Below are positions 1,099-15,955 of a DNA stretch of 64,000 bases, piece by piece. The notes beneath the pieces were generated by a model. The model was not told the origin of the DNA, did no database searches, and saw only the letters and a program-made list of their open reading frames with translations. Where the stretch lies: the NCBI RefSeq assembly GCF_018308945.1, contig NZ_CP070501.1, positions 868,001 to 932,000 on the forward strand, written 5' to 3'. The stretch is from Agrococcus sp. Marseille-Q4369 (GTDB taxonomy: Bacteria > Actinomycetota > Actinomycetes > Actinomycetales > Microbacteriaceae). The first letter of the stretch is position 1. The number at the start of each line of letters is the position of its first letter. Made by a program: the position numbers and the translations under genes.

Positions 1099-1105
1099 GC
1101 CCTCC

Positions 1106-1111
1106 AGCGTA
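1106..1111 (-). promoter_or_regulatory. -10 element of miaB (leaderless type)
   Basis: TACGCT on the minus strand ends 7 nt before the miaB ATG, so transcription would begin at or next to the start codon. No -35 was assigned. Confidence 0.45.
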
Positions 1112-1135
1112 CCGAGCGGCGACCGCCCCGAAGCG

Positions 1136-1573
1136 TCAGTCCTGCGTGGCCGTGAGCGTGTAGCTGCTGCCGTTCGTGCCCTCGCCCGAGAGGTCCATCC
1201 GACCGTCCTGGGCGGTGCCGGAGACGGTCAGGTCGAACTCGCCCTCCTCGAGGCCCGTGATCGTGACGGTGAGGTCGGACGAGTCGCCCTCCCACACGTC
1301 CTGCGGGAAGTCGTACTGCGCGTCCGAGTCGCCCCACGTCGTGATGTCGACGGTGCCGTCGGCGTTGAGCGTGAACCCGAAGGGCGCGACGACGCCGTCG
1401 ATGGCGCCCGTCCACGAGGTGTCGTCGAGGCTCTCCGCCGCCGAGCTGCCGGAGCCGTTGCCGGTGTCGGTGTCGTTGCCCGGCGCTGCGGGCGGCATCT
1501 GGATGCAGCCCGTGAGCGCGAGGAGGGAGGCGGCGGCGAGCGCCGGGACGGTGATGAGCTTGGTGGTCTTCAT
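1136..1573 (-). CDS. small secreted lipoprotein
   Basis: A 145-residue protein with a lipoprotein signal peptide: positively charged start (MKTTK), hydrophobic core, and lipobox LTGC with the lipidated cysteine at residue 22. A Ser/Gly/Asp-rich linker follows (about 30-48), then a roughly 95-residue domain rich in Thr, Asp and Gly that looks like a beta-structured extracytoplasmic domain. It should be anchored to the outer face of the membrane. I do not recognise the domain family. The gene lies alone between recX and miaB, with its own TAGATT -10 hexamer 6 nt before the ATG. Function unknown. Confidence 0.85.
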
Positions 1574-1579
1574 GCGCTC

Positions 1580-1585
1580 AATCTA
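1580..1585 (-). promoter_or_regulatory. -10 element of the lipoprotein gene at 1136-1573
   Basis: TAGATT on the minus strand lies 6 nt before the ATG at 1573, matching the leaderless pattern seen across the window. Confidence 0.45.
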
Positions 1586-1640
1586 TCGCTCAGCCATGAG
1601 CCGGATGCTGACCCTCGACCCGGAGCGGCTGCCGTGCTGG

Positions 1641-2303
1641 TCAGCGGAAGCGCGGCCCACTGGGCCGCGAGCGCTCGATCGCGAGGCGCACGGCGCCACC
1701 GCTGAACCCGCGCCGCTGCAGCCAGCCGGCGAGCCGTCGCTCGGCTGTCTCATCGTCGAGCGATCCTATGCGACGCCGCCGGTCGGCGGCCGCATCGATC
1801 GCGCGCTGCAGCTCGTCGTCGCGGTCCGGCTCGTCGAGCACGGCGGGGTCGAGGCCGCGCTGGCGCAGCGCCGCGGCGATCCCGCGCTCGCCGAGCTGCT
1901 TGCGCTCGCGGAGGCGCTCTGCCTCGTCGCGCGCGAGCTGCTCGTCGTCGAGGTAGCGCTCGTCGACGAGCCGGTCGAGCACCGCCGCGCGCACGTCGGG
2001 CTCGACGTCGCGCTTCGCGAGCGCCCGGTCGAGCTCGAGGCGGCTCGCGCCGCGTCGGCCGAGGGCTCGCAGCGCGATCGCTCGCGCCGCCTCCTCGTCG
2101 ATCGGCTCGAGCGGCGCGCCGTCGTCATCTCGCTCCCCGGCGCGGCCGCGCGAGCCCCCGCCGGAGCGGCCGCGCGAGCCGCGCCGCGAAGCGCCGGGCC
2201 CAGCGGGCGCCTCGGCCTCGGGCTGGTCGCCGGTGCGCTCGTCGCGCCCGGCGATCCAGCTCGAGAGCTCGGTGACCCCGGCGAGCCGGTCAGCGTCGCT
2301 CAC
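1641..2303 (-). CDS. recX: RecX, regulator of RecA
   Basis: RecX binds RecA and RecA filaments and limits recombinase activity. The 220-residue product has a charged, Gly/Arg/Ser-rich N-terminal third (about 20-65). The helical RecX repeats follow, with typical motifs such as [29 protein letters not shown] and [12 protein letters not shown]. It starts at a GTG whose first bases overlap the recA stop codon (GTGA, 4 bp), so the two are co-transcribed and probably translationally coupled, as in other actinomycetes. It should share SOS control with recA. Confidence 0.93.
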
Positions 2304-3358
2304 GCGCCCTGGCGCTCCTGCCGGCGCGCGTCGAGCGACTCGACGCCCGCTTCGGGCGCCGCGGCGCCGATGCCGAGCTTGCCCAGGATCTGCCGCTCGA
2401 TCGAGCCCGCGATGTCGGGGTTGTCGAGCAGGAACTGGCGTGCCTTCTCCTTGCCCTGGCCGAGCTGGTCGCCGTCGTAGGTGTACCAGGCGCCGGACTT
2501 GCGGACGATGCCGTGCTCGACGCCGAAGTCGATGAGGCTGCCCTCGCGGGAGATGCCGACGCCGTAGAGGATGTCGAACTCGGCCTGCTTGAACGGCGGC
2601 GCCATCTTGTTCTTGACGACCTTGACGCGCGTGCGGTTGCCGACCGCGTCGGCACCGTCCTTGAGCGTCTCGATGCGGCGGATGTCGAGGCGCACCGAGG
2701 CGTAGAACTTGAGCGCCTTGCCGCCCGCGGTCGTCTCGGGGCTGCCGAAGAAGACGCCGATCTTCTCGCGCAGCTGGTTGATGAAGATCATCGTCGTGCC
2801 GGTCTGGTTGAGACCGCCGGTGAGCTTGCGGAGCGCTTGCGACATGAGGCGCGCCTGGAGGCCGACGTGGCTGTCGCCCATCTCGCCCTCGATCTCGGCG
2901 CGCGGCACGAGCGCCGCGACGGAGTCGATGACGATGATGTCGATCGAGCCGGAGCGGATGAGCATGTCGGCGATCTCGAGCGCCTGCTCACCGGTGTCGG
3001 GCTGGGAGACGAGCAGCGAGTCGATGTCGACGCCGAGCTTCTTGGCGTACTCGGGGTCGAGCGCGTGCTCGGCGTCGATGAACGCCGCGATGCCGCCGCC
3101 CCGCTGCGCGTTGGCGATCGCGTGGAGCGTCAGCGTCGTCTTTCCCGACGACTCGGGGCCGTAGATCTCGATGATGCGCCCGCGGGGCAGGCCGCCGATG
3201 CCGAGCGCGGCGTCGAGGGCGATCGAGCCCGTCGGGATGATCTCGACGGGCGCGCGTTCCTCGCTGCCGAGGCGCATGACGGACCCCTTGCCGAACTGAC
3301 GGTCGATCTGCGCGAGCGCCGCCTCGAGCGACTTGTCGCGGTCTGCGGGTGTGGGCAT
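2300..3358 (-). CDS. recA: RecA recombinase
   Basis: RecA is the ATP-dependent strand-exchange protein and the SOS co-protease. The 352-residue protein shows the Walker A motif GPESSGKTT (about 67-75), a Walker B strand ([12 protein letters not shown]), the L2 region and the conserved [11 protein letters not shown] segment. I chose ATG 3358 over an upstream in-frame start at 3412 because GGAAGG sits about 8 nt before it and the product begins where the family does ([15 protein letters not shown]). recX overlaps its stop codon. A LexA-type box lies about 117 bp upstream, so damage induction is expected. Confidence 0.98.
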
Positions 3359-3474
3359 GTGCTTGCCTTCCGTTTCGGTGATGGCGCTCACGCTACGTCG
3401 GGCCGCTGACATGCGAGCGACCCCGGTCCCGGCCTGTGGACAGTCCCGTCGAGCACCCTCAGCCTACGCGCGGA

Positions 3475-3490
3475 TCGAACGCATCTTCGA
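3475..3490 (-). promoter_or_regulatory. LexA/SOS box upstream of recA
   Basis: The 16-bp near-palindrome TCGAAC-N4-CTTCGA (read on the plus strand) differs by one base from the actinobacterial/Bacillus-type LexA consensus TCGAAC-N4-GTTCGA. It lies about 117 bp upstream of the recA start and just downstream of the DUF3046 stop. That LexA binds here is inference from sequence and position; no lexA gene is in the window. Confidence 0.7.
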
Positions 3491-3516
3491 ACGATCCCGC
3501 GGCGTGTCGCGATGCG

Positions 3517-3738
3517 TCAGCGACGCGCCTCGCGGACGCCGCGGCCGTGGCGCCGCGCGACGGGCACGTCCTTCGCGTCGCAGATCGCCTGCCAGACCTG
3601 GCGCGGCGGGACGCCGTCGGCGAGGGCGACCGCACCCGTGCGACCGCCGAGGCTCGAGAGCGTCGTGTCCTCCATCAGCACCGCCCCGAGCGAGCCGAAC
3701 TCCTCCTCGAGCGCGAGCTGCAGCTCGCTAGCCCGCAT
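3517..3738 (-). CDS. DUF3046 family protein
   Basis: A 73-residue protein of the DUF3046 family, which is typically encoded just upstream of recA in actinomycetes. The visible signature is the acidic helix around EEEFG followed by LGGRT, ALADGVPPRQVW and CDAMDVP-like residues (here AICDAKDVPVARR). Its molecular function is unknown. The ATG at 3738 lies 10 bp after the stop codon of the ClgR-like gene, so the two probably form an operon. The SOS box lies after its stop codon and should therefore act on recA rather than on this gene. Confidence 0.85.
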   Translation of the reverse strand: MRASELQLALEEEFGSLGAVLMEDTTLSSLGGRTGAVALADGVPPRQVWQAICDAKDVPVARRHGRGVREARR

Positions 3739-3748
3739 CCGCCGGCTC

Positions 3749-4078
3749 TCAGCGCACCGCGGAGTCGAACTCCGCGACGAGGTCGTCGGGCAGCGTGTCG
3801 GGCACGGTCGCGCCGATGCGGTCGAGCTCGTGGTAGCCGAGGCCCTCGAGCACCGCGAGGCGGTCGCCCACCTCGTGCAGCACGCTCGAGAGCGGCACGT
3901 CGAGCGCTTCGGCGACCGACGCGAGGATCTCGCTCGAGGCCTCCTTCTGGCCCCGCTCGACCTCGCTGAGGTATCCGAGGGCGACCGAGGCGCGGGAGGC
4001 GACCTGGCGCAGGGTACGGCCCTGACGCAGGCGCACATCGCGCAGCACGTCGCCGATCTCCTGTCGAACCAGCACCAT
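3749..4078 (-). CDS. clgR: ClgR-like XRE-family transcriptional regulator
   Basis: A 109-residue DNA-binding protein with a helix-turn-helix near its N-terminus (about residues 22-50: TLRQVASRASVALGYLSEVERG). Sequence and neighbourhood (next to pgsA-cinA) match ClgR, the actinobacterial activator of clp protease and other proteolysis and stress genes. ATG 4078 is preferred over a GTG at 4093 because a strong AGGGGGAG ribosome site lies directly before it, inside the longer reading frame. The C-terminal part (DTLPDDLVAEFDSAVR) may be the conditional degradation tail expected for ClgR, which is inference. Confidence 0.85.
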   Translation of the reverse strand: MVLVRQEIGDVLRDVRLRQGRTLRQVASRASVALGYLSEVERGQKEASSEILASVAEALDVPLSSVLHEVGDRLAVLEGLGYHELDRIGATVPDTLPDDLVAEFDSAVR

Positions 4079-4194
4079 GGTCTCCCCCTTCACCGTGGAT
4101 GCATCATGCTAGCCGCAGCTTGCCTGCGTGCCGCTCGATGCCTACGACCTGTGACAACGCAACGCTCCCACCGCGCATTCCGAGGGAGCACTCC

Positions 4195-4731
4195 TCAGCC
4201 CTTGGATTCGCTGTGCATCACGAGGTCGGTGCGCTCGAGCGCGGCGTCGAGCTCCCTGAGCGCCGCGAGCAGCGCCGCCTCGCGCACCTGCTCGCGATCG
4301 CCCGGCTCGAAGTGGGAGGAGGCGTGCGAGTGGAGCCCGTCGACCGTCTCGACCTCGATGCCGATGTGGAACTCGCCCGGCGCGTGGTCGTCCTGCGCTC
4401 CAGGACCCGCGACGCCCGTCGTGCCCAGGCCGATCGTGCAGTCGCTCCGGTCGAGCGCGGCGAGGCGGCGCACGCCGCGCGCCATCCAGATGGCGACGTC
4501 GGGGTCGACCGGTCCTCGCTCCTCGAGCAGGTCGGTCGGCACACGCAGCACCTGCTCCTTCATCTCGGTCGCGTACGCGACGACGCCGAGGCGCAGCACG
4601 ACCGACGCCCCCGGCGTGCGCACGAGCGTCTCGGCGACGAGCCCGCCCGTGAGCGACTCCGCGACCGCGATCGAGATCCCCCGCGCCGCGGCTCGCGCGA
4701 CGATCCAGCCCGACAGCTCCAAAGCATCCAT
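4195..4731 (-). CDS. cinA: CinA-family nicotinamide-nucleotide amidohydrolase domain protein
   Basis: A 178-residue protein made only of the C-terminal CinA domain, as is usual in this part of actinomycete genomes. The family (PncC) deamidates NMN to nicotinate mononucleotide in pyridine nucleotide recycling. Hallmarks are SIAVAESLTGGLVAETL near residue 20 and GTTGVAGPG near residue 105. The N-terminal competence-damage domain is absent. Its ATG overlaps the pgsA stop codon by one base (TGATG), so it is translationally linked to pgsA. The assignment of NMN deamidase activity rests on the family only. Confidence 0.9.
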   Translation of the reverse strand: MDALELSGWIVARAAARGISIAVAESLTGGLVAETLVRTPGASVVLRLGVVAYATEMKEQVLRVPTDLLEERGPVDPDVAIWMARGVRRLAALDRSDCTIGLGTTGVAGPGAQDDHAPGEFHIGIEVETVDGLHSHASSHFEPGDREQVREAALLAALRELDAALERTDLVMHSESKG

Positions 4732-5330
4732 CAACTGCTCCTCCACGCGTGCCAGACGAACTCGAGTCCCGAGTAGATCGTGAGCGCGACCGCGATCGTC
4801 ATCGTGACGACGCACGCCCACACGCCCCACTCGCCCACCCACGCCTGCAGCGGCAGGAGCGCGAGCGGCAGCGCGATCCCCTGCGCCATGGTCTTCGCCT
4901 TGCCCGCCCAGTCGGCGGCGATCACGGTGCGGCTCGAGACGATGAGCCGGTAGAGCGTGATGCCCCACTCGCGCACGAGCACGACGATCGTGATCCACCA
5001 CGGCAGCTCGCCGAGCACCGAGAGCACGACCAACGCGCTCGAGGTGATCGCCTTGTCGGCGATCGGGTCGATGAGCTTGCCGAAGTCGGTCACGAGCCCG
5101 CGGTCGCGAGCGATGCGCCCGTCGACGAAGTCGGTCGCGATGAGCACCGCGAACAGCACCGCCGCGAGCGTGCGCACGAGGCCCGGCTCGGGGTTCGAGA
5201 GCGCGACGACGACGAAGACCGGGGTGAGCAGGATGCGCACGACCGAGATGAGGTTCGGCACGCTCGCGACGCTCGCGGGCTCATCGCCCCTGCGCCACAC
5301 GCGCCCGCGCCACGGGCTCAGGATCGCCAT
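4731..5330 (-). CDS. pgsA: CDP-diacylglycerol-glycerol-3-phosphate 3-phosphatidyltransferase
   Basis: A 199-residue membrane enzyme of the CDP-alcohol phosphatidyltransferase family. It makes phosphatidylglycerol phosphate from CDP-diacylglycerol and glycerol 3-phosphate. The full catalytic signature D-x2-DG-x2-AR-x8-G-x3-D-x3-D is visible around residues 67-93 (DFVDGRIAR, then G, D and D). Several hydrophobic helices surround it. The start is supported by a TAGCCT hexamer 6 nt upstream, suggesting a leaderless mRNA. Position next to cinA and clgR is the conserved actinomycete arrangement. Confidence 0.93.
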   Translation of the reverse strand: MAILSPWRGRVWRRGDEPASVASVPNLISVVRILLTPVFVVVALSNPEPGLVRTLAAVLFAVLIATDFVDGRIARDRGLVTDFGKLIDPIADKAITSSALVVLSVLGELPWWITIVVLVREWGITLYRLIVSSRTVIAADWAGKAKTMAQGIALPLALLPLQAWVGEWGVWACVVTMTIAVALTIYSGLEFVWHAWRSS

Positions 5331-5336
5331 GCTGGG

Positions 5337-5342
5337 AGGCTA
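5337..5342 (-). promoter_or_regulatory. -10 element of pgsA
   Basis: TAGCCT on the minus strand ends 6 nt before the pgsA ATG at 5330, matching the leaderless pattern. Confidence 0.45.
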
Positions 5343-5376
5343 CTCGGCCCACCTGAAGCGTGCCCTGGCACGCGGC

Positions 5377-8202
5377 TCAGTCGCGGCCGGTGAGCGACCA
5401 CGCGTCGTCGTCGCCCTCGGCCTCGACGGCCTCGAGCCCGTCGCGGTTGACCTCGTCGAAGGGGTCGCTGTAGCGGTCGTCGGTCTCGACCCACGCGCCC
5501 TCGTCGTCGTCGGATGCGTCGGGCGACTCGAGCGCGCTCGGCGCCGGCCGCTCCACGGCTGCCGGCGAGGCGTCCGCGGGCGACGCGGCCGCGGCGGGCG
5601 CCGGCCCCTCGCCGCGCAGCGACGCGAGCACGGCCGCGAGCCCCTCCGGCGGCACGAGCACGTCGCGCGCCTTCGATCCCTCCGAGGGTCCGACGATCTC
5701 GCGCGACTCCATGAGGTCCATGAGCCGGCCGGCCTTCGCGAAGCCGACGCGGAGCTTCCGCTGCAGCATCGAGGTCGAGCCGAACTGGGTCGAGATGACG
5801 AGCTCGGCTGCCGCGCACAGGTCGTCGAGGTCGTCGCCGATGTCGGCGTCGATCTCGCGCTTCTGCGCGGTCTCCTCGACGTCGTCGCGGTACTCGGGGC
5901 GCGCCTGGCCGGTGACGTGCTGCACGACGCGCTGGATCTCGGCCTCGTCGACCCACGCGCCCTGCACGCGCATCGCCTTGTTGGCGCCCATCGGCAGGAA
6001 GAGCCCGTCGCCCTGGCCGATGAGCTTGTCGGCGCCGGGCTGGTCGAGGATGACGCGCGAGTCGGTGACGCTCGAGACGGCGAACGCGAATCGGCTCGGC
6101 ACGTTGGCCTTGATGAGGCCCGTGACGACGTCGACGGAGGGCCGCTGCGTCGCGAGCACGAGGTGGATGCCCGCGGCCCGCGCGAGCTGCGTGATGCGCA
6201 CGATCGAGTCCTCGACGTCGCGCGGCGCGACCATCATGAGGTCGGCGAGCTCGTCGACGACGACGAGCAGGTACGGGTAGGGCTTGAGCGTGCGCTGGCT
6301 CCCGGCGGGGAGCACGATCTCGTCGGCGCGCACCGCCTTGTTGAAGTCGTCGATGTGCTTGTAGCCGAACGACGCGAGGTCGTCGTACCGCATGTCCATC
6401 TCCTTCACGACCCACTGCAGCGCCTCGGCGGCCTTCTTCGGGTTCGTGATGATGGGAGTGATGAGGTGCGGCACGCCCTGGTAGGCGGTCAGCTCGACGC
6501 GCTTCGGGTCGACGAGCACCATGCGCACCTCGGCGGGCGTCGCGCGCATGAGCAGGCTCGTGATCATCGAGTTGACGAACGACGACTTCCCCGAGCCGGT
6601 CGAGCCGGCCACGAGCAGGTGCGGCATCTTCGCGAGGTTCGCGACGACGTAGCCGCCCTCGACGTCCTTGCCGATGCCGATCGTCATCGGGTGCTTGGAG
6701 TCGGCGGCGGCGCGCGAGCGCAGCACGTCGCCGAGCTTGACCGTCTCGCGGTCCGGGTTCGGGATCTCGATGCCGATCGCCGACTTGCCCGGGATGGGCG
6801 AGAGGATGCGCACCTCGTTCGACGCGACGGCGTACGAGAGGTTCTTCGACAGCGCGGTCACGCGCTCGACCTTGACGCCCGGCGCGACCTCGATCTCGTA
6901 GCGCGTGACCGTCGGCCCGCGCGAGAAGCCCGTGACTCGCGCGTCGACGTTGAACGAGCCGAGCACCTGGGTGATCGCCGCGACGATCTCGTCGTTGGCC
7001 GCCGAGCGCGCCTTGGGCGGGTCGCCCTGCGCGAGCGAGGCGATCGACGGCAGCCGGTAGGGGCGCTGCGCGACGGCGGGCGCCGCCGCGATCGGCTCGG
7101 CCGGCGCGTCGAGCGCGACCTCGCCGGTGTGCTTCCGCATGGCCGCCTCGGCCTGCTCGAGCGACTCGAGCACGGCGGTCGCGTACTCCTCGTGCTCGTC
7201 GTCGGCGACCTCCGGCAGCGGCTCGGGGGTCGTCGCGGGCACCGCGACCGCCTCGGCGTCGACGCGCGTCGTCGGCTGCTCGCGGTCGATCATCACGGGG
7301 GTGTCGTAGGCGGGATCGACCTCGCGGCCGGTCGCGTTGCGGCGCCAGAACGGCAGCGAGCCGGTGCCCGACTCGATCGAGTCGCCCTCGATCGGCTCCT
7401 CCTCGGCCGCCTCGGCCTTCGCGAGCTCCTTCGCCTCGCGGCGAGCGCGGCGGGCCTCCTCGCGCTCCTCGGGCGTGCCGGTCTCGATGCCGAAGAGGTA
7501 GCCGTAGAGGTCGGTGAGCCGCTCGGGGATGCGGGTCGGGGGCGTGCGGGTGATGACGAGCACCGCGAGCGCGGCGACGAGGCCGCAGACGATGCCGGCA
7601 CCGATCGGCGTCATCAGCGCCGCGAGCGGCGCGGCGGCGACCCAGCCGAGGATGCCGCCCGCGTCGGCGAGCGCGGGCATGCCGAGCGACGCATCCGGCA
7701 TCCCGAGCAGCACGTGGCACAGACCGGCGACGGAGATGAGCAGCAGCGCGATGCCGACGCCGACGCGGCCGTTGTCGCTCACCGAGGCCGGGTGGCGGAA
7801 CATCCACAGCGCGAGGAGCACGAAGACGACCGGCAGCGCGATCGCGACCTGGCCGAAGAGCCCGCCCCACGTGTAGGCGGAGATGGCCTGCGCGACCGCG
7901 TTGGCCGGCAGGATCCACTCGACGACCGCGCCGAGCACCGCGAGGATCGTGAGCAGGAAGGGCACGCCGTCGCGGCGCTCCTCCTTCGCGAGCGACTCGC
8001 GGCCGAAGACGCGCGCCGCACCGCCCGTCGCGTGCGCGAGGCCCATCCACGCGCGCTGCGCGAGGCCGGGGCCGTCGTCCTCGAACACGGGCTGCGCCTT
8101 CGTCGACCGGGCCGCCCGGTGCACCTTCGTGGTCGCGGAGGTCGACGTGCCGGTCGAGCGCCCGCGCGGGGACGGCTTGGTCGACTTGGTGCTCGTGGCC
8201 AT
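5377..8202 (-). CDS. ftsK: FtsK/SpoIIIE DNA translocase
   Basis: A 941-residue septal DNA pump that clears and resolves chromosomes during division. Domain order: a basic N-terminal tail ([14 protein letters not shown]), about four membrane helices (roughly 75-215), a charged linker rich in Glu and Ala (about 240-385), the alpha/beta motor domain and a winged-helix gamma domain. The motor has Walker [11 protein letters not shown] and the following [13 protein letters not shown] region. The gamma domain is [24 protein letters not shown], about 825-850. An acidic C-terminal extension of about 80 residues follows the gamma domain. ATG 8202 is chosen over a GTG 9 bp upstream because TAGGGT lies 7 nt before it. 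Confidence 0.97.
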
Positions 8203-8209
8203 GGCCGAC

Positions 8210-8215
8210 ACCCTA
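8210..8215 (-). promoter_or_regulatory. -10 element of ftsK
   Basis: TAGGGT on the minus strand ends 7 nt before ATG 8202. It supports this start over the in-frame GTG at 8211, which would lie inside the hexamer. Confidence 0.5.
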
Positions 8216-8251
8216 GATGCCGGCGCCCACGAGCGGCCGGAGGCGCTCCGC

Positions 8252-9469
8252 TCAGAAGCGGATGGCCTCGATCACCTTCGAGCGGACGGCGATCGTCGCG
8301 GGCACGCTGCCCGCGAGCGCGCCGACGGCCGCGGCGACCACGAGCCCCGTGACGGCGGCCGACATCGGGAAGCCCGGCAGCACCATGCCGCCGACGCCCT
8401 GCGTGAGCGCGTCCTGCACGATCGGCAGCCGGTAGGCGAAGATGCACACCGCGATGCCGATCGTGCCGGCGACGACGGTGCCGACGACCGACTCGAGCAT
8501 GACTGCGACGAAGATGCGGGTGCGCGACGCCCCGAAGGCGCGGCGGATGCCGAGCTCGCGCACGCGCTGCCGGATCGAGACGACGGCGACGGTCACGAGC
8601 CCGAGCGCGCCGAGCAGCAGGATGACGGCGGCGGTGCCGACGAGCGTGAGCTGCAGCGGCAGCAGCGGGTCATAGCCGTCGTCGAACGACTGCCAGTCGC
8701 TGCGGTTGCCGTCGACCATCGCGCCCGGGAGCGCCCCGCGCAGATCCTGCCGCAGCATCCGCACGCCCTCCTCGGCAGTCTCCTCCGGCACCCACGCCTC
8801 GAGCTGGAACGAGACCCCGAAGCTCATCGGGTCGGTCTCGGCGATGCGCACCACGTCGCGCGGCAGCATCCACGCCTGCGGCCAGTCGTCGCCGAGCCCC
8901 CGATCGACGAGGCCGACGACGACCGCGGTCGTGCCGCCGAGCTCGATCGTGCGGTGCGCCTCCATGCCCCCGCCGCCGAGCGCGTCGAGCACGCCGCGAT
9001 TGACGACGACCGCCGGGGCGAGGCGGGCGCGATCGCTCTCGACGAGGAACCGGCCCTCCGCGACCGGCAGGTGCCGCAGGATCGCCCAGTCGGGGTCGAC
9101 GCCCGCGAGCTCGACCTGCTGCGGACCGCCGAGCCCGACCAGGGTCGCCCCGGTGTTCGTCGTCGCGCTCGCGAAGTCGATGCTGTAGCGCTCGACCGCG
9201 GTCTCGATGGCGTCGAGCGTCGCGCCCGGATCGCCGCCGGGCGTGCCGTCGGCGGAGCCCTCCTGGATCCACATGCTGATCGTGGCGGCGCGGCCGGTCT
9301 GCGCCTCCATCGACGTCAGCAGCGTCGAGCGGGCGAGGTCGCCGAGGGCGACGGATGCGGTGAGCGCGGCGATCGCGACCGTCACGCCGATGAGGCTCAT
9401 GAGCACGCGGCCGCGGTGGATGCGCAGCTCGGTCCAGGCGTCCTGGATCGCGGCGACGACGTCGGTCAC
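8252..9469 (-). CDS. MacB-like ABC transporter permease
   Basis: A 405-residue permease of the MacB/FtsX type. An N-terminal membrane helix (about 15-40) is followed by a large extracytoplasmic domain (about 45-275). Three C-terminal helices follow (about 285-395), with the conserved [16 protein letters not shown] coupling segment between the first two. Such proteins transmit ATP hydrolysis mechanically across the membrane rather than moving substrate through a classic channel. It starts at GTG 9469, overlapping the stop of the ATPase gene by 4 bp, and is the last gene of a three-gene export operon. Substrate unknown; antibiotics or peptides are typical for the family. Confidence 0.88.
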
Positions 9470-10173
9470 GAGAGCGCTCCCGCCGCCGGCTCGAGCGCGT
9501 GGAGCCGCCCGTCGGCGAGCCGCAGCACGCGTCGCGCGCGAGCGGCGACCGCGAGGTCGTGCGTGATGGTCACGAGCGCGGCTCCGGCCTCGGTCGCGAC
9601 CTCGTCGAGCAGGTCCATCGTGCGCGAGCCGGTCTCGATGTCGAGCGCTCCGGTCGGCTCGTCGGCGAGGATGAGCCGCGGCCGGCGCACGAGCGCCCGG
9701 GCGATCGCGACGCGCTGCTGCTCGCCGCCGGAGAGATTCGTGGCCCTCGTGTCGAGGCGGTGCCCGAGCCCCACGCGCTGCAGCATCTCGCGCGCCAGGT
9801 GGGCGCGCTGCCAGTAGCGGCGGCCCGCGCCGTAGTGGAGCGGCACGGCGACGTTCTCGGCCGCCGTGAGCCCCTCGATGAGGTTGAACTGCTGGAAGAC
9901 GAAGCCGACGCTCGCGCCTCGCAGCCGGTCGCGCGCGCGGGCGCCCATGAGCGCGACCGGCTCGCCGTCGAGCTCGACGGCCCCGGTCGTCGGCTGGTCG
10001 ATGAGCCCGAGGATGTTGAGCAGGGTCGACTTGCCCGAGCCGGAGCGGCCGACGATCGAGACGCGGTCCCCCGGCGCGACGTCGAGGTCGATGCCGCGGA
10101 GGATCTGCAGCGCGGGCCCGTCGATCGTCGCGAACTGGCGCGTGACGTCGCGCAGGCGAAGGAGCGGCACCAT
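9466..10173 (-). CDS. MacB/LolD-like ABC transporter ATP-binding protein
   Basis: A 235-residue ATPase with Walker A GRSGSGKST (about 42-50), Q-loop VFQQFN (about 92-97), ABC signature LSGGEQQRVAIARAL (about 147-161), Walker B LILADEPTG and the H-loop histidine (ITHD). It belongs to the MacB/LolD/FtsE class that pairs with FtsX-type permeases, which fits the next gene. Its ATG shares one base with the stop codon of the membrane fusion protein gene (TGATG), so all three should be translated together. Confidence 0.93.
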   Translation of the reverse strand: MVPLLRLRDVTRQFATIDGPALQILRGIDLDVAPGDRVSIVGRSGSGKSTLLNILGLIDQPTTGAVELDGEPVALMGARARDRLRGASVGFVFQQFNLIEGLTAAENVAVPLHYGAGRRYWQRAHLAREMLQRVGLGHRLDTRATNLSGGEQQRVAIARALVRRPRLILADEPTGALDIETGSRTMDLLDEVATEAGAALVTITHDLAVAARARRVLRLADGRLHALEPAAGALS

Positions 10174-11327
10174 CAGAACCCGCAGACCATGGGGTCGGCT
10201 GTCATCGGGTCGGCGCACGGGTCGGCGGCTCCGGGCACGAACTGCAGCACGGCATCCCCCTCCGAGAGCCCTGCGCGCACCTCGACCATGCGCCCGTCGC
10301 TGAGCCCGAGCTCGACGGGCACCTCCTCCGGCTCGCCGTCGGCGCCGGGCCGGTAGGCGATGCCGGTCTCGGCGCTGCCGAGCACGGCGGTCGTCGGCAG
10401 CAGCAGCACGTCGCTCGCCGAGCCCGCGCTCAGCTCGACCTTCGCGGCGAGGCCGACGAAGACGCGCACGTCGCTCGGCACCGCGCACGTGAGCGTCGCG
10501 CTCGCGCCGGTCGTGATCTGCTCGCCGGCCGGCTGGGCGATCCTGACCGAGCCGCACTCGAACGGCGCGGGCCCGCCGTCGATCGTGACGGTCGCCGACT
10601 CGGGCTGCGTCGTGAGCCGGTACTGCTCTGCCGCGCCGAGGCTCGCGCGCACGACGTGCTCGGGCGGCTGCACGGCGCCGGTCTCCCCCGCGACGTCGAC
10701 GCTCTGGCCGACGAGCACGGCGAAGCCCGTGAGCGTGCCGGCGGCGGGCGCGACGATGCTGTGCACGCGCGCGGTGGGCGGCGGCACGGTGCCGTCGGCT
10801 GCGGGCGCGCCCTGCGTCTCGACGCGCACCGTGTAGAGCACGTCGCCCGCGGCGACCTGCGCGCCGTCCGCGGCGCTCACGCGCGCGACGGTGCCCGAGT
10901 GGGTCGAGCGCACCGGCACCGCCTCGACCGGCACGATCATGCCCTCGATCGAGACGGCGTTCTCGACCGAGCCGCGCTCGACCGTCGCGAGCGGCTCCTC
11001 GAACGCGGCGCCGGGCGCGAAGCCGTCGTCGGCGCTCACCGCCTCGACGTCGGGGAAGAACGCGAGCTTGACGAGCGCGATCGCGATCGCCGCGCCGACG
11101 GCGAGCTTGAGCACCGGCAGCACCCACGTGCGCCACGCGCCCGGGCCGCGAGCCGCGCGCTCCGCCTTCCGCAGCCGCGAGCGCTCGAGCTGCTCGAGCC
11201 TCGCCTGCCGCTTCGCGGCCGCTCGCGCCTCGCGCTGCGAGGGCTGGCGATGCACGGGGGCCTCGCCGTGCAGCGGCGGCGGCACGGCCGCGGGCTCGAC
11301 GGGGGCGGTCTGGTCCTGCTCGGGCAC
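10173..11327 (-). CDS. HlyD/MacA-like membrane fusion (adaptor) protein
   Basis: A 384-residue adaptor. The N-terminal 65 residues are cytoplasmic, proline-rich and then strongly basic, with a run of Arg/Lys/Ala. One membrane helix follows (about 69-90). The outside part holds a split biotinyl-lipoyl-like region (VPVRSTHSGTVARVSAADGAQVAAGDVLY, cited here only as a landmark near 135-165) and beta-barrel domains. Four cysteines lie outside, two of them close to the C-terminus. In Gram-positive bacteria such MacA-like proteins assist a MacB-type ATPase and permease. GTG 11327 has an AGAGGA ribosome site. It heads the operon, with TAGCGT about 55 bp upstream as a possible -10. Confidence 0.85.
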   Translation of the reverse strand: MPEQDQTAPVEPAAVPPPLHGEAPVHRQPSQREARAAAKRQARLEQLERSRLRKAERAARGPGAWRTWVLPVLKLAVGAAIAIALVKLAFFPDVEAVSADDGFAPGAAFEEPLATVERGSVENAVSIEGMIVPVEAVPVRSTHSGTVARVSAADGAQVAAGDVLYTVRVETQGAPAADGTVPPPTARVHSIVAPAAGTLTGFAVLVGQSVDVAGETGAVQPPEHVVRASLGAAEQYRLTTQPESATVTIDGGPAPFECGSVRIAQPAGEQITTGASATLTCAVPSDVRVFVGLAAKVELSAGSASDVLLLPTTAVLGSAETGIAYRPGADGEPEEVPVELGLSDGRMVEVRAGLSEGDAVLQFVPGAADPCADPMTADPMVCGF

Positions 11328-11440
11328 GGCGGCGTCCTCTCGGGCGGGGCGGCGCGCATCCGTTGCGTGCCCTCGCTCGTCACGCTAGGGCACGCGAGCG
11401 CGCTCGCCCCTCCCCCTCGAGGATGATCTCGACGTGTCGG

Positions 11441-11581
11441 CTACGCCTCGATGACGACCGGCACGATCATCGGGCGGCGGCGGATGCGCGTGCCCACCCA
11501 GCGGCCGACCGTGCGGCGCACGACCTGCTGGAACTGGTGCTGGTCGCGCACGCCATGCTCGCCGGCCTCGGCGAGCGCCTT
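11441..11581. repeat. direct repeat, distal copy (rnj 3' end)
   Basis: A 141-bp direct repeat of 12673-12813 with four mismatches, at plus-strand offsets of about 40, 91, 113 and 128. It marks the outer edge of the lower-GC insert behind rnj. The two copies lie 1232 bp apart, so recombination between them would delete the insert and restore an intact rnj end. Confidence 0.95.
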
Positions 11582-11641
11582 CGCGAGGACGACAAGGTCT
11601 TCGACCCTTTCGCCGCAAGATCTTCGAGGGCTCGCCGAGGC
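11582..11641. repeat. inverted segment inside the rnj tail fragment
   Basis: On the plus strand this segment contains GAGGACGACAAGGTCTTCGA followed by a CGCC..AAGATC..GCTCGC..GAGG pattern. In rnj that order is found on the minus (coding) strand, as the codons for EDDKVFD..RPKIVKALAEA. The flanks on both sides are in direct orientation, so the segment looks flipped in place. The end nearest 11641 also forms an inverted repeat with GGCCTCGGCGAGCGCCT at about 11564-11580. Confidence 0.75.
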
Positions 11642-11782
11642 GGGCCGACGATGGCCTTCGTCGTCCGCGACTCGAGTGCGACGATTGTCCGACCAAGAAA
11701 GCTGCGCAGAAAAGAACATTGCGGGAGTCGCATCGGCCGACTACGTTCTGGAGGTACCCACGAGTTCGACGATCGGAAAGAC

Positions 11783-12379
11783 ATGCGCTCCTTGGCGCGA
11801 CTGACAGCAGTTCTCACTATTGTTGCTGGATTCATCGGAGGTGTGAGTCAAGCGCCCGGCCCCCAGCAGCTCGACGTTGCAGATGACTCAGGGATCGTAG
11901 CTCCGAACATATTTCTCGACCCGTGGGAAACGCTGCAATGCCGCAAGGGCAATACCGGCTTCACTGTCCACGACTACTACGACTTTTACCAGCAGGAGTA
12001 TGTCTCTTTGCGCTGCGGGAGCCACAACGACTCGACGAGCACGGGCTCGGGTTGGGTGCACATCGAGGCGAGGCACTACGAGGACTGGCAGGCTCTGCTC
12101 GATAGATGTCGCGCAGAAAACGGATGCTTCGATCCGACCGTGCATTGGGACGACGTGATGAATTTGTCCATCCAGGCGGCGCTGGAGGCACAGCTGCAGG
12201 TGGTGCCGCGGGCCTCGAACCAGACTGCTTGCTATGCGACCGAAGTGTGGCTGAATTCGGATCCAATCGTCGTCTACTATCCTGCCATCGTTCTCTCGAC
12301 CAATCGAGGCGGCTCGGCGGACGATCCGCAGAACATCATAACGGCGTACTTCTCCACTTCGGACAGCACACCGTGCTGA
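11783..12379 (+). CDS. secreted cysteine-rich protein of unknown function (insert cargo)
   Basis: A 198-residue protein with a signal peptide (MRSLARLTAVLTIVAGFIGG, likely cleavage after about residue 22-25). The mature part is acidic and aromatic-rich, with seven cysteines near residues 53, 78, 109, 115, 150 and the C-terminus (last residue 198), suggesting disulfides outside the cell. I do not recognise a family. ATG 11783 has a GGAAAG ribosome site about 5 nt upstream and is the only start that gives a signal peptide; the frame stays open upstream only through the antisense of the rnj fragment. Base composition is clearly lower in GC than its neighbours (52-63% in two lines I counted). Its stop overlaps the next gene by one base. 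Confidence 0.75.
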   Translation: MRSLARLTAVLTIVAGFIGGVSQAPGPQQLDVADDSGIVAPNIFLDPWETLQCRKGNTGFTVHDYYDFYQQEYVSLRCGSHNDSTSTGSGWVHIEARHYEDWQALLDRCRAENGCFDPTVHWDDVMNLSIQAALEAQLQVVPRASNQTACYATEVWLNSDPIVVYYPAIVLSTNRGGSADDPQNIITAYFSTSDSTPC

Positions 12380-12666
12380 TGAGCGATTCTCCCGCCCGCG
12401 AGGTCGAGATCGCAGTCGACTACGGAGTACGCTGGCCAGTCAAGGTTGATCACATGTACACGTCCGAGATTCGGCGCCTACTCGATCCGGCGACGATCGA
12501 TGAGCTCAGCCATCTAGCCGAATGGTGGCATGAAGCCTTCGCTGCCACCCCAGATAACTTCGCACACCCCGCTCCCGACGCGGTCATCGACGAGTGGCGG
12601 CGCCGGCTCGACCACGCCAGAGCCACGCTGCAGCGTGATCTCGGACCTGGGTTCATCGTCGCCTGA
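12379..12666 (+). CDS. small acidic cytosolic protein paired with the secreted protein
   Basis: A 95-residue protein with no signal peptide or membrane helix. It starts at ATG 12379, sharing one base with the preceding stop codon (TGATG), so the two are translated together. It opens with a short beta-like stretch (VEIAVDYGVRWPVKV) and continues as acidic, Trp-rich helices (LAEWWHEAF, DEWRRRLDHARATLQRDLG). The DYG-x-WP opening resembles small uncharacterised actinobacterial proteins I remember only loosely, so I give no family name. Pairing with a secreted cysteine-rich protein suggests an immunity-like or chaperone role, which is inference. It ends 6 bp before the rnj stop codon, convergently. 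Confidence 0.7.
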   Translation: MSDSPAREVEIAVDYGVRWPVKVDHMYTSEIRRLLDPATIDELSHLAEWWHEAFAATPDNFAHPAPDAVIDEWRRRLDHARATLQRDLGPGFIVA

Positions 12667-12672
12667 TGGAAC

Positions 12673-12813
12673 CTACGCCTCGATGACGACCGGCACGATC
12701 ATCGGGCGGCGACGGATGCGCGTGCCCACCCAGCGGCCGACCGTGCGGCGCACGACCTGCTGGTACTGGTGCTGGTCGCGCACGCCCTGCTCGCCGGCCT
12801 CCGCGAGCGCCTT
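12673..12813. repeat. direct repeat, proximal copy (rnj 3' end)
   Basis: This is the copy of the 141-bp repeat that forms the functional end of rnj, including its TAG stop at 12673-12675. It pairs with 11441-11581. Confidence 0.95.
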
Positions 12814-14346
12814 GACGATCTTCGGGCGGATGTCGTCGAAGACCTTGTCGTCCTCGGCGAAGCCGCGCGCGTGGATCTCGGGGCCGACGATGACCTTGCC
12901 GGTCTGCGGCTCGAGCGCGACGAAGATCGAGATGAAGCCCTCCTCGGCGAGGATGCGGCGGTCCTTGAGGTCGGCCTCGTCGATGCGGCCGACGGACGAG
13001 CCGTCGACGTAGACGAAGCCGATCTCGAGCTGGCCCGAGACCGTCACCTCGCCGTCGCGCAGGTCCCACACGGTGCCGTTCTCGCCGACGAACGCTCGGT
13101 CGCGCGGCACGCCGGTGTCGATCGCGAGCGACGCCGCGGCGTGCAGGTGGCGGTACTCGCCGTGCACCGGCACGACGTTCCGCGGCTTGAGGATGTTGTA
13201 GCAGTACAGCAGCTCGCCCGCCGAGGCGTGGCCCGAGACGTGCACCTTCGCCGAGCCCTTGTGCACGACCTTCGCCCCGAGCTGCATGAGCCCGTTGATG
13301 ACGCGGAAGACGGCGTTCTCGTTGCCGGGGATGAGGCTCGAGGCGAGGATGACGGTGTCGCCCTCGCCGACCTCGATGCGGTGCTCGCCGTTGACGATGC
13401 GGCTCAGCACCGCCATCGGCTCGCCCTGCGAGCCGGTCGACATGAAGACGACCTGCTCGCGCGGCATGTTCTCGGCCTCCTTCTGGCTCACCACGACGCC
13501 GTCGGGCACCTTGAGGTAGCCGAGGTCGGCCGCGATGCCCATGTTGCGCACCATCGAGCGGCCGACGAACGCGACCTTGCGGCCGTTCTCGTGCGCCGCG
13601 TCGAGCACCTGCTGCACGCGGTGCACGTGGCTCGAGAAGGAGGCGACGACGACGAGCCCGGAGGTCTTCGCGATCACCTGCGAGATGACGGGGCCGATCT
13701 CGCGCTCGGGCGCCGTGAACCCCGGGACGTCGGCGTTCGTCGAGTCGACCAGGAACGCATCCACGCCCTCCTCGCCGAGCCGCGCGAACGCGCGCAGGTC
13801 GGTGATGCGGTCGTCGAGCGGCAGCTGGTCCATCTTGAAGTCGCCCGTGTGGAGCACGAGGCCCGCGCTCGTGCGGATCGCGACGGCGAGGGCGTCGGGG
13901 ATCGAGTGGTTGACGGCGACGAACTCGGTCTCGAACGGGCCGAGCTGCTCGACGTCGCCCTCCCTCACCGTGTGGGTGTAGGGCTTGATGCGGTGCTCCT
14001 TGAGCTTCGCCTCGACGAGCGCGAGGGTGAGCTGCGAGCCGAGCAGGGGGATGTCGGCCTTGAGGCGCAAGAGGTAGGGCACGGCGCCGATGTGGTCCTC
14101 GTGGCCGTGCGTGAGCACGACGGCGACGATGTCGTCGAGGCGGTCGCGGATGGGACCGAAGTCGGGCAGCACGAGGTCGACGCCCGGCTGGTGCTCCTCG
14201 GGGAAGAGCACGCCGCAGTCGACGATGAGCAGCTTGCCGTCCTGCTCGTACACCGTCATGTTGCGGCCGACCTCGCCGAGGCCGCCGAGCGGGAAGAAGC
14301 GGAGGGTGCCCGTCGCGAGCGCGGGGGGCTGGGTGATGGCCGTCAA
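12673..14346 (-). CDS. rnj: Ribonuclease J
   Basis: RNase J is a metallo-beta-lactamase-fold exo/endoribonuclease for mRNA decay and rRNA maturation. The 557-residue protein has the zinc motif HGHEDH (about residues 80-85) in the first beta-lactamase part, the beta-CASP region with STGSQGEP and the C-terminal RNase J domain. A TTG start at 14346 is supported by AAGGAGG about 4 nt upstream. The final 244 bp are duplicated 1.2 kb downstream, and the 3' end borders the lower-GC insert, so its last codons may derive from a recombination event. Position next to dapA is conserved in actinomycetes. Confidence 0.96.
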   Translation of the reverse strand: MTAITQPPALATGTLRFFPLGGLGEVGRNMTVYEQDGKLLIVDCGVLFPEEHQPGVDLVLPDFGPIRDRLDDIVAVVLTHGHEDHIGAVPYLLRLKADIPLLGSQLTLALVEAKLKEHRIKPYTHTVREGDVEQLGPFETEFVAVNHSIPDALAVAIRTSAGLVLHTGDFKMDQLPLDDRITDLRAFARLGEEGVDAFLVDSTNADVPGFTAPEREIGPVISQVIAKTSGLVVVASFSSHVHRVQQVLDAAHENGRKVAFVGRSMVRNMGIAADLGYLKVPDGVVVSQKEAENMPREQVVFMSTGSQGEPMAVLSRIVNGEHRIEVGEGDTVILASSLIPGNENAVFRVINGLMQLGAKVVHKGSAKVHVSGHASAGELLYCYNILKPRNVVPVHGEYRHLHAAASLAIDTGVPRDRAFVGENGTVWDLRDGEVTVSGQLEIGFVYVDGSSVGRIDEADLKDRRILAEEGFISIFVALEPQTGKVIVGPEIHARGFAEDDKVFDDIRPKIVKALAEAGEQGVRDQHQYQQVVRRTVGRWVGTRIRRRPMIVPVVIEA

Positions 14347-14449
14347 GGGGCCTCCTTCATATGCGGCTCGCGTGTGGCGAGCGGATGTGGGGTGCGCGCT
14401 CCTCGCGCGCGGGAAGATCTGGGGTGGATGCGGTCACGGGCTCGCGCGC

Positions 14450-15421
14450 TCAGCGCGTCGTGCCGTGCACCTTCGGCAGGGCGCCGCCAGCGGCGGCGTT
14501 GCGGTCGGGGCGGAAGCGGCTTAGGTCGAGGCCGTCGACGCCCGTGACGAGCGCGAGCTCGTCCTCGATGAGGGCCGCCTCGGCGTCTTCGGGGCCGACG
14601 AGCGGCAGGCGCACGCGCGGGCTGCCGATGCGGCCGAGCCCGTGCAGGATGTACTTCGTCGAGACTGTGCCGGGCACGTGCGTCATCGTCGCGCGCACGA
14701 GCGGCTCGAGCGCCTGGTGCTGCGCCTGCGCGGTGTGCAGGTCGCCCGCGTTCACGGCGTCGACGATCGTGCGGTACGGCTTGGGCGCGATGTTCGCGGT
14801 GACGCCGATGAGGCCCGACGCGCCGATCGCGAGGTGCGGGAGCACGTTCGCGTCGTCGCCCGAGAAGTAGAGCAGGTCGGTCTGGTTCAGCACGCGGCTC
14901 ACCTCGGCGAAGTCGCCCTTGGCGTCCTTCACCGCGAGGATGTTCGGGTGCTTCGCCGCCCGCAGGAGCGTCTCGTAGCGGATCGGGATGCCCGAGCGGC
15001 CGGGGATGTCGTAGAGGATGACCGGCAGGTCGGTCGCGTCGGCGATGAGCCGGAAGTGCGTGAGCACGCCCGCCTGCGTGGGCTTGTTGTAGTACGGCGT
15101 GACGATCATGACGCCGTCGGCGCCCGCTCGCTCGGCCTGGCGGTAGAGGTCGATCGCGTGCGCGGTCTCGTTCGAGCCGCCGCCCTGGATGACCTTCGCG
15201 CGGTCGCCCGCGACGGCCTTCGCGACCTCGACGAGCCGGATCTTCTCCGGGTCGGTGAGCGTCGACGTCTCGCCGGTCGTGCCGGAGACGACGATGCCGT
15301 CGGCGCCGTGCGTCACGACGTCGTCGATGAGCCGCTCGACGTCGTCCCAGTCGACCTCGCCGTCCGCCGAGAACGGCGTCACGAGCGCGACGAGCACCTG
15401 GCCGAAGGGATTGGGATTCAC
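14450..15421 (-). CDS. dapA: 4-hydroxy-tetrahydrodipicolinate synthase
   Basis: DapA condenses aspartate semialdehyde and pyruvate in the first committed step of lysine and diaminopimelate synthesis. The 323-residue TIM-barrel protein shows GTTGETSTLT (about 44-53), the tyrosine region VTPYYNKPTQAG (about 137-148) and the Schiff-base lysine segment ILAVKDAKGD (about 176-185). It starts at a GTG 6 nt after TAGCCT, a hexamer that overlaps the dfrA stop codon. It can therefore be transcribed independently of thyA-dfrA. It lies between dfrA and rnj. Confidence 0.96.
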   Translation of the reverse strand: MNPNPFGQVLVALVTPFSADGEVDWDDVERLIDDVVTHGADGIVVSGTTGETSTLTDPEKIRLVEVAKAVAGDRAKVIQGGGSNETAHAIDLYRQAERAGADGVMIVTPYYNKPTQAGVLTHFRLIADATDLPVILYDIPGRSGIPIRYETLLRAAKHPNILAVKDAKGDFAEVSRVLNQTDLLYFSGDDANVLPHLAIGASGLIGVTANIAPKPYRTIVDAVNAGDLHTAQAQHQALEPLVRATMTHVPGTVSTKYILHGLGRIGSPRVRLPLVGPEDAEAALIEDELALVTGVDGLDLSRFRPDRNAAAGGALPKVHGTTR

Positions 15422-15427
15422 CCGACC

Positions 15428-15433
15428 AGGCTA
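15428..15433 (-). promoter_or_regulatory. -10 element of dapA, overlapping the dfrA stop codon
   Basis: TAGCCT on the minus strand ends 6 nt before GTG 15421. Its first three bases are the dfrA TAG stop codon, so promoter and stop are shared. Confidence 0.5.
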
Positions 15434-15955
15434 CCGTGCCTGCCGCGAGCCCGTCCCCGGTGCGCGCTCGAGGGTGCGGTACGCGAACCGCAGCCCGCTG
15501 CGGCTCTCGTGCCACCCCTCGGCCGGATCGCGCGCGACCTCGTGCCATGACGCATCCGGGGTCGGCGCTGTCGTGTCGCCCGTCGCGTCGAGCTCGATGT
15601 CGGTGATCTCGAGCCGGTCGGCACGCGCCATCGCCTCGCGGTAGACGCGGCCGCCGCCGACGATCCACACCTCGTCGTCGAGCGCGAGCGCCACGGCGAG
15701 CGCTTCGTCGAGGCTCGAGACGACGCGCGCGCCGGGCGCGTCGAAGTCGCCGCTCGAGGTGATGACGATGTTGTCGCGCCCCAGCAGCGGCCGGTAGCGC
15801 GCGGGGAACGACTCCCACGTGCGTCGGCCCATCACGACCGGGTGGCCCATGGTGATCGCCTTGAAGCGCGCCATGTCCTCGGGGAGCGACCACGGCATGT
15901 CGCCCGCGTCGCCGATGACGCCGCCGCGCGCCTGCGCCCAGATCATGCCGATCAT
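15431..15955 (-). CDS. dfrA: Dihydrofolate reductase
   Basis: DHFR regenerates tetrahydrofolate with NADPH, which is needed because ThyA oxidises the cofactor. The 174-residue protein shows IWAQARGGVIG, MPWSLPEDMARFK and MGRRTWESFP in the first 52 residues, with the catalytic acid in PEDM at about residue 27. The NADPH site VWIVGGGRVY lies near 96-105. Its ATG shares one base with the thyA stop (TGATG), so the two are coupled. Its stop codon doubles as part of the dapA -10 hexamer. Confidence 0.95.
   Translation of the reverse strand: MIGMIWAQARGGVIGDAGDMPWSLPEDMARFKAITMGHPVVMGRRTWESFPARYRPLLGRDNIVITSSGDFDAPGARVVSSLDEALAVALALDDEVWIVGGGRVYREAMARADRLEITDIELDATGDTTAPTPDASWHEVARDPAEGWHESRSGLRFAYRTLERAPGTGSRQAR

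What the first reader, a model, noticed from the sequence alone, without database searches (positions are those of the whole stretch)
11441..12813. Lower-GC insert at the rnj 3' end bracketed by a duplicated rnj tail
Seen in sequence: a 141-bp direct repeat (four mismatches) of the rnj end lies 1232 bp downstream. The roughly 1 kb between holds visibly lower-GC DNA with two genes and no transposase. Known: elements that integrate in the 3' end of a gene often bring a replacement end, leaving the displaced end at the far side. Inference: rnj is an integration or recombination site, and the 141-bp repeats act like attL/attR or allow excision by homologous recombination. rnj is, to my knowledge, not a commonly reported target.
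Basis: partly seen in the sequence, partly recalled or inferred. Interest (0 to 1): 0.8.

Follow-up and report, generated by a model that had tools for sequence, protein, structure and literature searches.

The report
Toxin-immunity cassette behind duplicated gene end
A small foreign two-gene unit, probably a secreted antibacterial toxin and its antidote, appears to have inserted at the end of an RNA-processing gene and left a scrambled spare copy of that gene's end on its far side; related units carry similar scars at unrelated genes, which hints at a recombinase-free way of acquiring such weapons.

Summary
In detail: a 141-bp direct repeat (4 mismatches) of the rnj end brackets the lowest-GC kilobase of the window. 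In 20 of 20 same-genus relatives fetched at rnj (of 23), insert and second tail are absent; in the two nearest, the rnj-HlyD gap is 113 nt, as beyond the distal tail here. The distal copy (about 244 bp) is degraded and micro-inverted, so it is the displaced one. The insert is a two-gene module: casA (198 aa, signal-like start) and casB (95 aa). casB matches the CDI immunity protein CdiI of Serratia by profile (E 4e-5) and fold (TM 0.70); casA as its toxin is inferred. Relatives occur across the family. Direct repeats bracket casA in 6 of 47 loci against 10 of 3433 control positions; four bracketed pairs, this one included, sit at unrelated gene ends (rnj, citrate synthase, Na/H antiporter, sigma factor), the last with a repeat of only 31 bp. 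Unrelated targets, variable repeat lengths and no integrase match nearby argue against an att site. Best explanation: recombinase-independent capture, such as homology-assisted illegitimate recombination. Whether the functional tail was imported is inconclusive, mobility is untested, and rnj does not look like a general hotspot.

The parts
12673..14346 (-). rnj, RNase J, intact, with the functional tail
   Evidence: 557 aa; RNase J Pfam domains and TIGR00649 over its cut-off; 92-98% to the 14 closest of the relatives listed, 80-85% to six others
12673..12818 (-). Proximal (functional) tail copy of the repeat
   Evidence: family D1; first base is the rnj stop codon
11441..11586 (-). Distal, displaced tail copy; direct part, not joined to a gene
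   Evidence: carries two amino-acid changes against the functional tail
11571..11645 (.). Micro-inverted part of the displaced tail, overlapping the direct part at its arm; borders approximate
   Evidence: matches about 12793-12870 reversed; exact 22-nt inverted match 11584-11605 / 12835-12856
11642..11684 (-). Last recognisable part of the displaced tail, 81% to 12881-12923
   Evidence: (D13)
11685..11782 (+). Leader of the cassette; presumably holds the casA promoter (inferred)
   Evidence: sequence position only; no promoter scan was run
11783..12379 (+). casA, 198 aa, hydrophobic signal-like start (by eye); likely the toxin of the pair (inferred)
   Evidence: weak model
12379..12666 (+). 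casB, 95 aa, CdiI-like immunity protein; start overlaps the casA stop by one base
11328..11440 (.). Native rnj-HlyD spacer, 113 nt, aligned with the spacer of the empty sites in G010 and G011
10173..11327 (-). HlyD/RND-adaptor-like gene, native neighbour of rnj in 13 of the 20 relatives fetched

Best explanation
A horizontally acquired toxin-immunity cassette (casA secreted toxin, casB cytosolic immunity protein) was inserted at the 3' end of rnj in this lineage after its split from its two nearest sampled relatives. The event left two copies of the rnj tail: the one joined to rnj keeps the gene whole and stays under selection, and the one beyond the cassette is a displaced, decaying relic with a micro-inversion. 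The most likely route is recombinase-independent: incoming DNA paired with rnj by homology on one side (or a repair polymerase switched template) and was joined illegitimately on the other side inside the gene, which doubles the tail instead of deleting it. Only outcomes with an intact rnj survive. Shown: insertion relative to the empty sites, two tails, decay of the distal one, immunity-protein homology of casB, recurrence of repeat-bracketed modules. Inferred: that casA is a toxin, the transfer route, and the homology-assisted joining.
For: Insert and second tail absent in 20 of 20 relatives fetched, with a 113-nt spacer at the same place in G010 and G011. Foreign composition: GC 59.4% against 72.8%, third-position GC 0.71 against 0.96-0.99 in four neighbours. 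Distal tail scrambled, proximal intact. casB profile hits CdiI 7m5f_A at E 4e-5 and its model has 7m5f_A as best PDB match, TM 0.70/0.68. Direct repeats bracket casA in 6 of 47 loci against 10 of 3433 control positions, and at 90% identity in 5 of 47 against 0 of 3433. Bracketed pairs at three other, unrelated gene ends: gltA, antiporter, sigma factor. Nearest PF00589 match about 56 kb away.
Against: No donor with casBA behind rnj was found. The proximal tail is not more diverged from G010 than the rest of rnj, so import of the tail is not shown. The repeat starts exactly at the stop codon, which a random duplication does not predict and a carried replacement end (including an integrase att) does. 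A looser casB-centred test that requires a gene end was only weakly enriched: 5 of 54 against 43 of 2626, and one of the five rests on a spurious ORF. In a scan of 56 sequences (570 kb) 14 repeats of at least 60 bp were found and only 4 bracket a casA-casB pair. The casA fold match is not significant.
Confidence: 0.6

Rival explanations
1. Remnant or passenger of a site-specific element: an integrase, lost or acting in trans, recombined an attP with a replacement rnj tail into rnj, and only the cargo remains.
For: The anatomy fits: the gene end is restored, a displaced end lies at the far side, and the repeat begins exactly at the stop codon. The displaced copies agree with relatives at the informative sites in three loci.
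Against: No recombinase seen in the insert; nearest PF00589 match about 56 kb away. Related cargo sits at four unrelated gene ends with repeats of 31 to about 244 bp and different orientations, so each would need its own integrase, lost each time.
Confidence: 0.2
2. Long target duplication made by the insertion itself (staggered break and fill-in, or template switching), with no imported tail.
For: Repeats are local sequence and differ in length and identity from site to site, including non-gene sequence in G583 and an internal NUDIX piece in G409. rnj shows no import signal.
Against: In the window the repeat edge coincides with the stop codon, and in A. minutum it lies at the stop codon too; random edges would rarely do so. 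In G409 the two copies do not have the layout of a simple target duplication.
Confidence: 0.15
3. Coincidence: the tail was duplicated by an unrelated event and the cassette came separately.
For: Small partial duplications occur; most repeats of this size in the fetched loci (10 of 14) do not bracket a casA-casB pair.
Against: Cassette and second tail are absent together in all 20 relatives fetched, and casA loci are bracketed above the background of the same loci.
Confidence: 0.05

Closest known systems
CdiA-CT/CdiI toxin-immunity pair of Serratia marcescens BWH57 (PDB 7M5F; PMC8616854, passages)
   Same: casB is similar to this CdiI in profile and predicted fold; toxin gene followed by a small immunity gene
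   Different: casA is a short stand-alone protein with a signal-like start, not the tail of a large CdiA; no CdiB seen in the insert; no detectable sequence match of casA to a solved toxin
Effector-immunity module capture by homology-facilitated illegitimate recombination in Vibrio cholerae (PMC5361080, passages)
   Same: Small toxin-immunity module enters by a proposed one-sided homology and shifts an older gene end downstream
   Different: There the displaced part belongs to the effector locus itself; here it is the tail of an unrelated housekeeping gene
Integrative elements that use gene 3' ends as att sites (recalled, not from a call)
   Same: Gene end kept intact, displaced end at the far side, empty sites in relatives
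   Different: No recombinase, insert of about 1 kb, and different targets and repeat lengths for related cargo
Small variable segments attributed to illegitimate recombination (PMC2884548, passages)
   Same: Short variable inserts without known mobile elements, some flanked by direct repeats
   Different: Those repeats were mostly below 30 bp according to the passage; here 31 to about 244 bp of a gene end

Membership tests
Site-specific integrative element | Recombinase encoded in or beside the element | tested here: not met
   Insert holds casA and casB only; nearest PF00589 match about 56 kb away. Serine recombinases were not searched for genome-wide.
Site-specific integrative element | A common attachment core shared by related elements | tested here: not met
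   Related cargo sits at rnj, gltA, an antiporter and a sigma-factor gene, with repeats of 31 to about 244 bp; no shared core seen by eye, no motif search run.
Site-specific integrative element | Empty sites with a single gene end | tested here: met
   20 of 20 relatives fetched; exact spacer in G010 and G011.
Site-specific integrative element | Excised circle or deletion product | not testable with these tools
   Needs cells or reads.
CDI-type (CdiI) immunity proteins | Sequence or fold similarity to a solved CdiI | tested here: met
   Profile E 4e-5; model TM 0.70/0.68 to 7m5f_A, Foldseek probability 1.00, E 0.012.
CDI-type (CdiI) immunity proteins | Neutralises the toxin encoded next to it | not testable with these tools
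   Needs expression.
BECR-fold nuclease toxins | BECR fold in casA | tested here: inconclusive
   Model pLDDT 70.6; CDI BECR toxin 6cp9 has the highest probability listed (0.47) but E 0.1; no sequence hit.
Homology-facilitated illegitimate recombination product | One junction homologous with a donor, one illegitimate | tested here: inconclusive
   No donor found; tail of rnj not unusually diverged.

The most novel reading that the evidence does not exclude
casA-casB modules are recombinase-free mobile cassettes that travel with, and are repaired by, copies of the host gene ends beside them. They spread by RecA-dependent exchange at many different core genes and are held in place by toxin-immunity selection.
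Probability: 0.15. Interest if true: 0.8.

Novelty: new variant of a known kind. Interest (0 to 1): 0.55.

Why it matters
How small toxin-immunity modules enter chromosomes without transposases or integrases is mostly inferred. Here an insertion with clean empty sites, a displaced gene end that records the event, and similar scars at unrelated genes in other genomes make the question testable. It also describes a secreted toxin-like family, mainly seen here in Microbacteriaceae, paired in many genomes with CdiI-like immunity proteins, for which Pfam and NCBIfam gave no model.

Tried and rejected
Considered and rejected or left open: an rnj paralogue as source of the distal tail (the own genome shows one full-length rnj match); rnj as a general hotspot (table cut); a transposon (no transposase-like ORF seen in the insert); an import signal in rnj (none). 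Antiporter homologues could not decide which tail is native in G350 (best 49%). Position 142 of the tail (index 141), where the distal copy shares a base with G010/G011 only, lies in the arm of the inversion and was not used. casA alone found no relatives in genome contigs. casA profiles found nothing convincing in the PDB. Paper searches with nothing on point in the listings: (no papers). A looser bracket test around casB was only weakly enriched. In the tail-duplication test by protein many hits are the casB frame itself overlapping the cassette edge and were not counted; a 31-bp, 87% bracket of casB in L161, and one of casB alone in L154, were not followed to an explanation. Rows left out: duplicate loci of the same region (L084, L085, L086; L088 in favour of L139); of 23 relatives in the genus search G012, G019 and G020 were not fetched downstream of rnj (short contig, no match, fragment).

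Full report
Observation. rnj (12673-14346, minus strand) and a second copy of its end at 11441-11581 differ at 4 of 141 positions and are spaced 1232 bp. The second copy is longer than reported. It matches directly over 11441-11586, then carries a stretch of about 75 bp that matches rnj in inverted orientation (about 12793-12870), then 43 bp of direct match at 81% (11642-11684 against 12881-12923). The inverted stretch scores 37 in a local alignment, 13.5 in direct orientation, and 18 at most in 500 shuffles. The distal copy is therefore about 244 bp of rnj end with an internal micro-inversion. Against the functional tail it has two amino-acid changes in its open part, one at a base that is the same in all 14 relatives compared. 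The insert 11685-12672 is 59.4% GC in a 72.8% window. Third-position GC is 0.71 in both cassette genes and 0.96-0.99 in four neighbours.

Empty site. The window lies in a genome of 2.74 Mb in one contig. The genus search covered 24 genomes with this one, and 23 had an rnj match. I fetched the rnj 3' region (8-11 kb) for 20 of the 23 relatives. In 20 of 20, tblastn finds one rnj end and no casA or casB. The HlyD-type neighbour of the window also follows rnj in 13 of the 20. In G010 and G011, the nearest (rnj 98%, HlyD-type 92-93%), the spacer between rnj stop and HlyD start is 113 nt by coordinates and aligns with 11328-11440 of the window. So the distal tail sits where the native tail sits in the empty sites.

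Which tail is native. At two third-codon positions the proximal tail differs while the distal tail agrees with G010, G011 and G017. In A. minutum the far-side gltA end has GTT, as do the four of seven relatives that share that end, and a flank resembling that of G319; the gene itself has GTC. In G198 the far-side copy has a T found in two of three close relatives where the gene has C. This fits a replaced tail, but also ordinary drift: rnj's tail is not more diverged from G010 than the rest of rnj. I call it inconclusive.

The cargo. casA (11783-12379) and casB (12379-12666) overlap by one base. Neither hits Pfam, NCBIfam, PADLOC or PHROGs at the thresholds used. With single sequences, casA relatives were found in 14 of 299 family genomes and casB in 2 of 299, this genome included in both. 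A casB profile matched 82 of 398 family genomes, and a casA profile 20 of 396 genomes drawn from the order. A casB-profile match lies beside casA in 9 of the 12 family loci fetched for but in only 7 of the 20 loci of the order set. The casB profile hits CdiI of Serratia marcescens BWH57, 7m5f_A, at E 4e-5. The AlphaFold2 model of the window casB (pLDDT 85.6) has 7m5f_A as best PDB match: probability 1.00, TM 0.70/0.68, E 0.012. According to the authors the toxin partner in 7M5F adopts the BECR nuclease fold (PMC8616854, passages). The casA model is weaker: pLDDT 70.6, the other four models 50-52. It has no significant match; the CDI BECR toxin 6cp9 has the highest probability listed (0.47) at E 0.1, while the best E-value (0.043) goes to an unrelated-looking Tae3-Tai3 entry. 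casB as an immunity protein is well supported. casA as its toxin follows from the pairing and is not shown.

Recurrence. In Aurantimicrobium minutum (L074 and L084, the same region) the pair lies convergent to citrate synthase between two 86-bp copies of the gltA end, 97.7% identical. In G350 (L148) it follows a Na/H exchanger gene in the same direction, with a 67-column, 83.6% copy of that gene's end beyond it. In G198 (L169) a convergent casB-casA pair (segments of 59-66% GC between flanks of 70-78%) is bracketed by a 31-bp, 96.8% copy of a sigma-70-type gene end. Less similar scars: an internal NUDIX fragment in G409 (285 bp, L155), a 205-bp repeat in G672 that looks by eye like the end of an IS30-like element (L230), and an 84-bp intergenic palindromic repeat in G583 (L243).

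Controls. Direct repeats of at least 60 bp, at least 80% identity and 0.7-2.6 kb spacing bracket casA in 6 of 47 loci, against 10 of 3433 control positions in the same loci; at 90% it is 5 of 47 against 0 of 3433. The script's binomial value without the window, 2.6e-7, overstates the case, because control positions overlap and lie nearer locus ends. Central positions of 21 other sequences gave 0 of 3258. Against this: in 56 sequences (570 kb) there were 14 such repeats at 0.5-3.5 kb spacing, of which 4 bracket a casA-casB pair, and a casB-centred test that requires a gene end gave 5 of 54 against 43 of 2626, one of the five resting on a spurious ORF. Only four loci including the window show the gene-end layout.

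Mechanism. A classical att site is unlikely. The nearest PF00589 match is at 822.7-823.2 kb, about 56 kb from the insert at 879.4 kb; other recombinase families were not searched. Related modules sit at four unrelated gene ends, in different orientations, with repeats of 31 to about 244 bp. Among 249 family genomes the rnj end is doubled nearby only here in the rows listed; nine others have a second match whose place was cut from the table. What remains is capture without a dedicated recombinase. Homology-facilitated illegitimate recombination pairs one end of incoming DNA by homology and joins the other end illegitimately. If that joint falls inside the gene, the tail is doubled and the gene survives. 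This process has been proposed for effector-immunity modules in Vibrio cholerae (PMC5361080, passages) and for small variable segments in bacterial genomes (PMC2884548, passages). The repeat edge at the rnj stop codon is best explained if the incoming DNA carried its own rnj end followed by unrelated sequence; no donor was found. Template switching without an imported tail is the main alternative. Recombination between the 141-bp copies could delete the cassette or make a circle; nothing here shows that it does.

Novelty. Searches of the open-access library listed no paper that, from titles and abstract starts, describes toxin-immunity cassettes bracketed by housekeeping-gene tails. The library lacks most subscription papers. 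The components are of known kinds. The combination, its recurrence at unrelated genes, and this secreted family with CdiI-like partners are new as far as these searches go.

Noticed in passing
L289 (G364:C1:647000-666000) 3174-15823; also L290 (G409): A NUDIX gene is present as one near-complete and two partial copies (90-99% identical over 460-614 bp) about 6 kb apart on one strand, with an AbiD-like (Abi_2) gene, a DUF4062 gene and an HSDR_N gene between them; in G409 the casA-casB pair lies between similar NUDIX copies. Possibly a cargo array anchored on repeated NUDIX pieces.
   Followed up: partly
L247 (window genome C1:1765500-1775500) 4974-5546; L245; L246: A divergent casA-like lipoprotein-type protein occurs in this genome and in G015 and G006 of the same genus; no casB-profile match or bracketing repeat there.
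   Followed up: partly
L230 (G672:C25:39000-45627) 4279-5816: casA (interrupted by a TAG) and casB lie between two 98% identical 205-bp repeats that look by eye like the end of an IS30-like element.
   Followed up: partly
L243 (G583:C5:151000-161000) 3747-5725: A longer casA-like gene with a different partner ORF is bracketed by an 84-bp, 97.6% repeat that holds a palindrome.
   Followed up: partly
L160 (G295:C58:1-6500): Repeats of 96-97 bp at 87-94% overlap casB, which suggests an array of casB-like immunity genes.
   Followed up: no
L088 (Clavibacter tessellarius, NZ_LQXA01000030.1) 1063-4812: A tandem repeat of about 2 kb (77%) lies just upstream of casA.
   Followed up: no
L078 (G282:C4:121400-129700) 4576-5348: A 125-bp repeat (83%) lies in front of casA and in front of a neighbouring small ORF, perhaps a duplicated promoter region.
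   Followed up: no
L154 (G388:C30:1500-9875) 2883-5370: A casB-like gene without a casA match and about 2 kb of other ORFs are bracketed by a 128-bp, 90.6% repeat.
   Followed up: no
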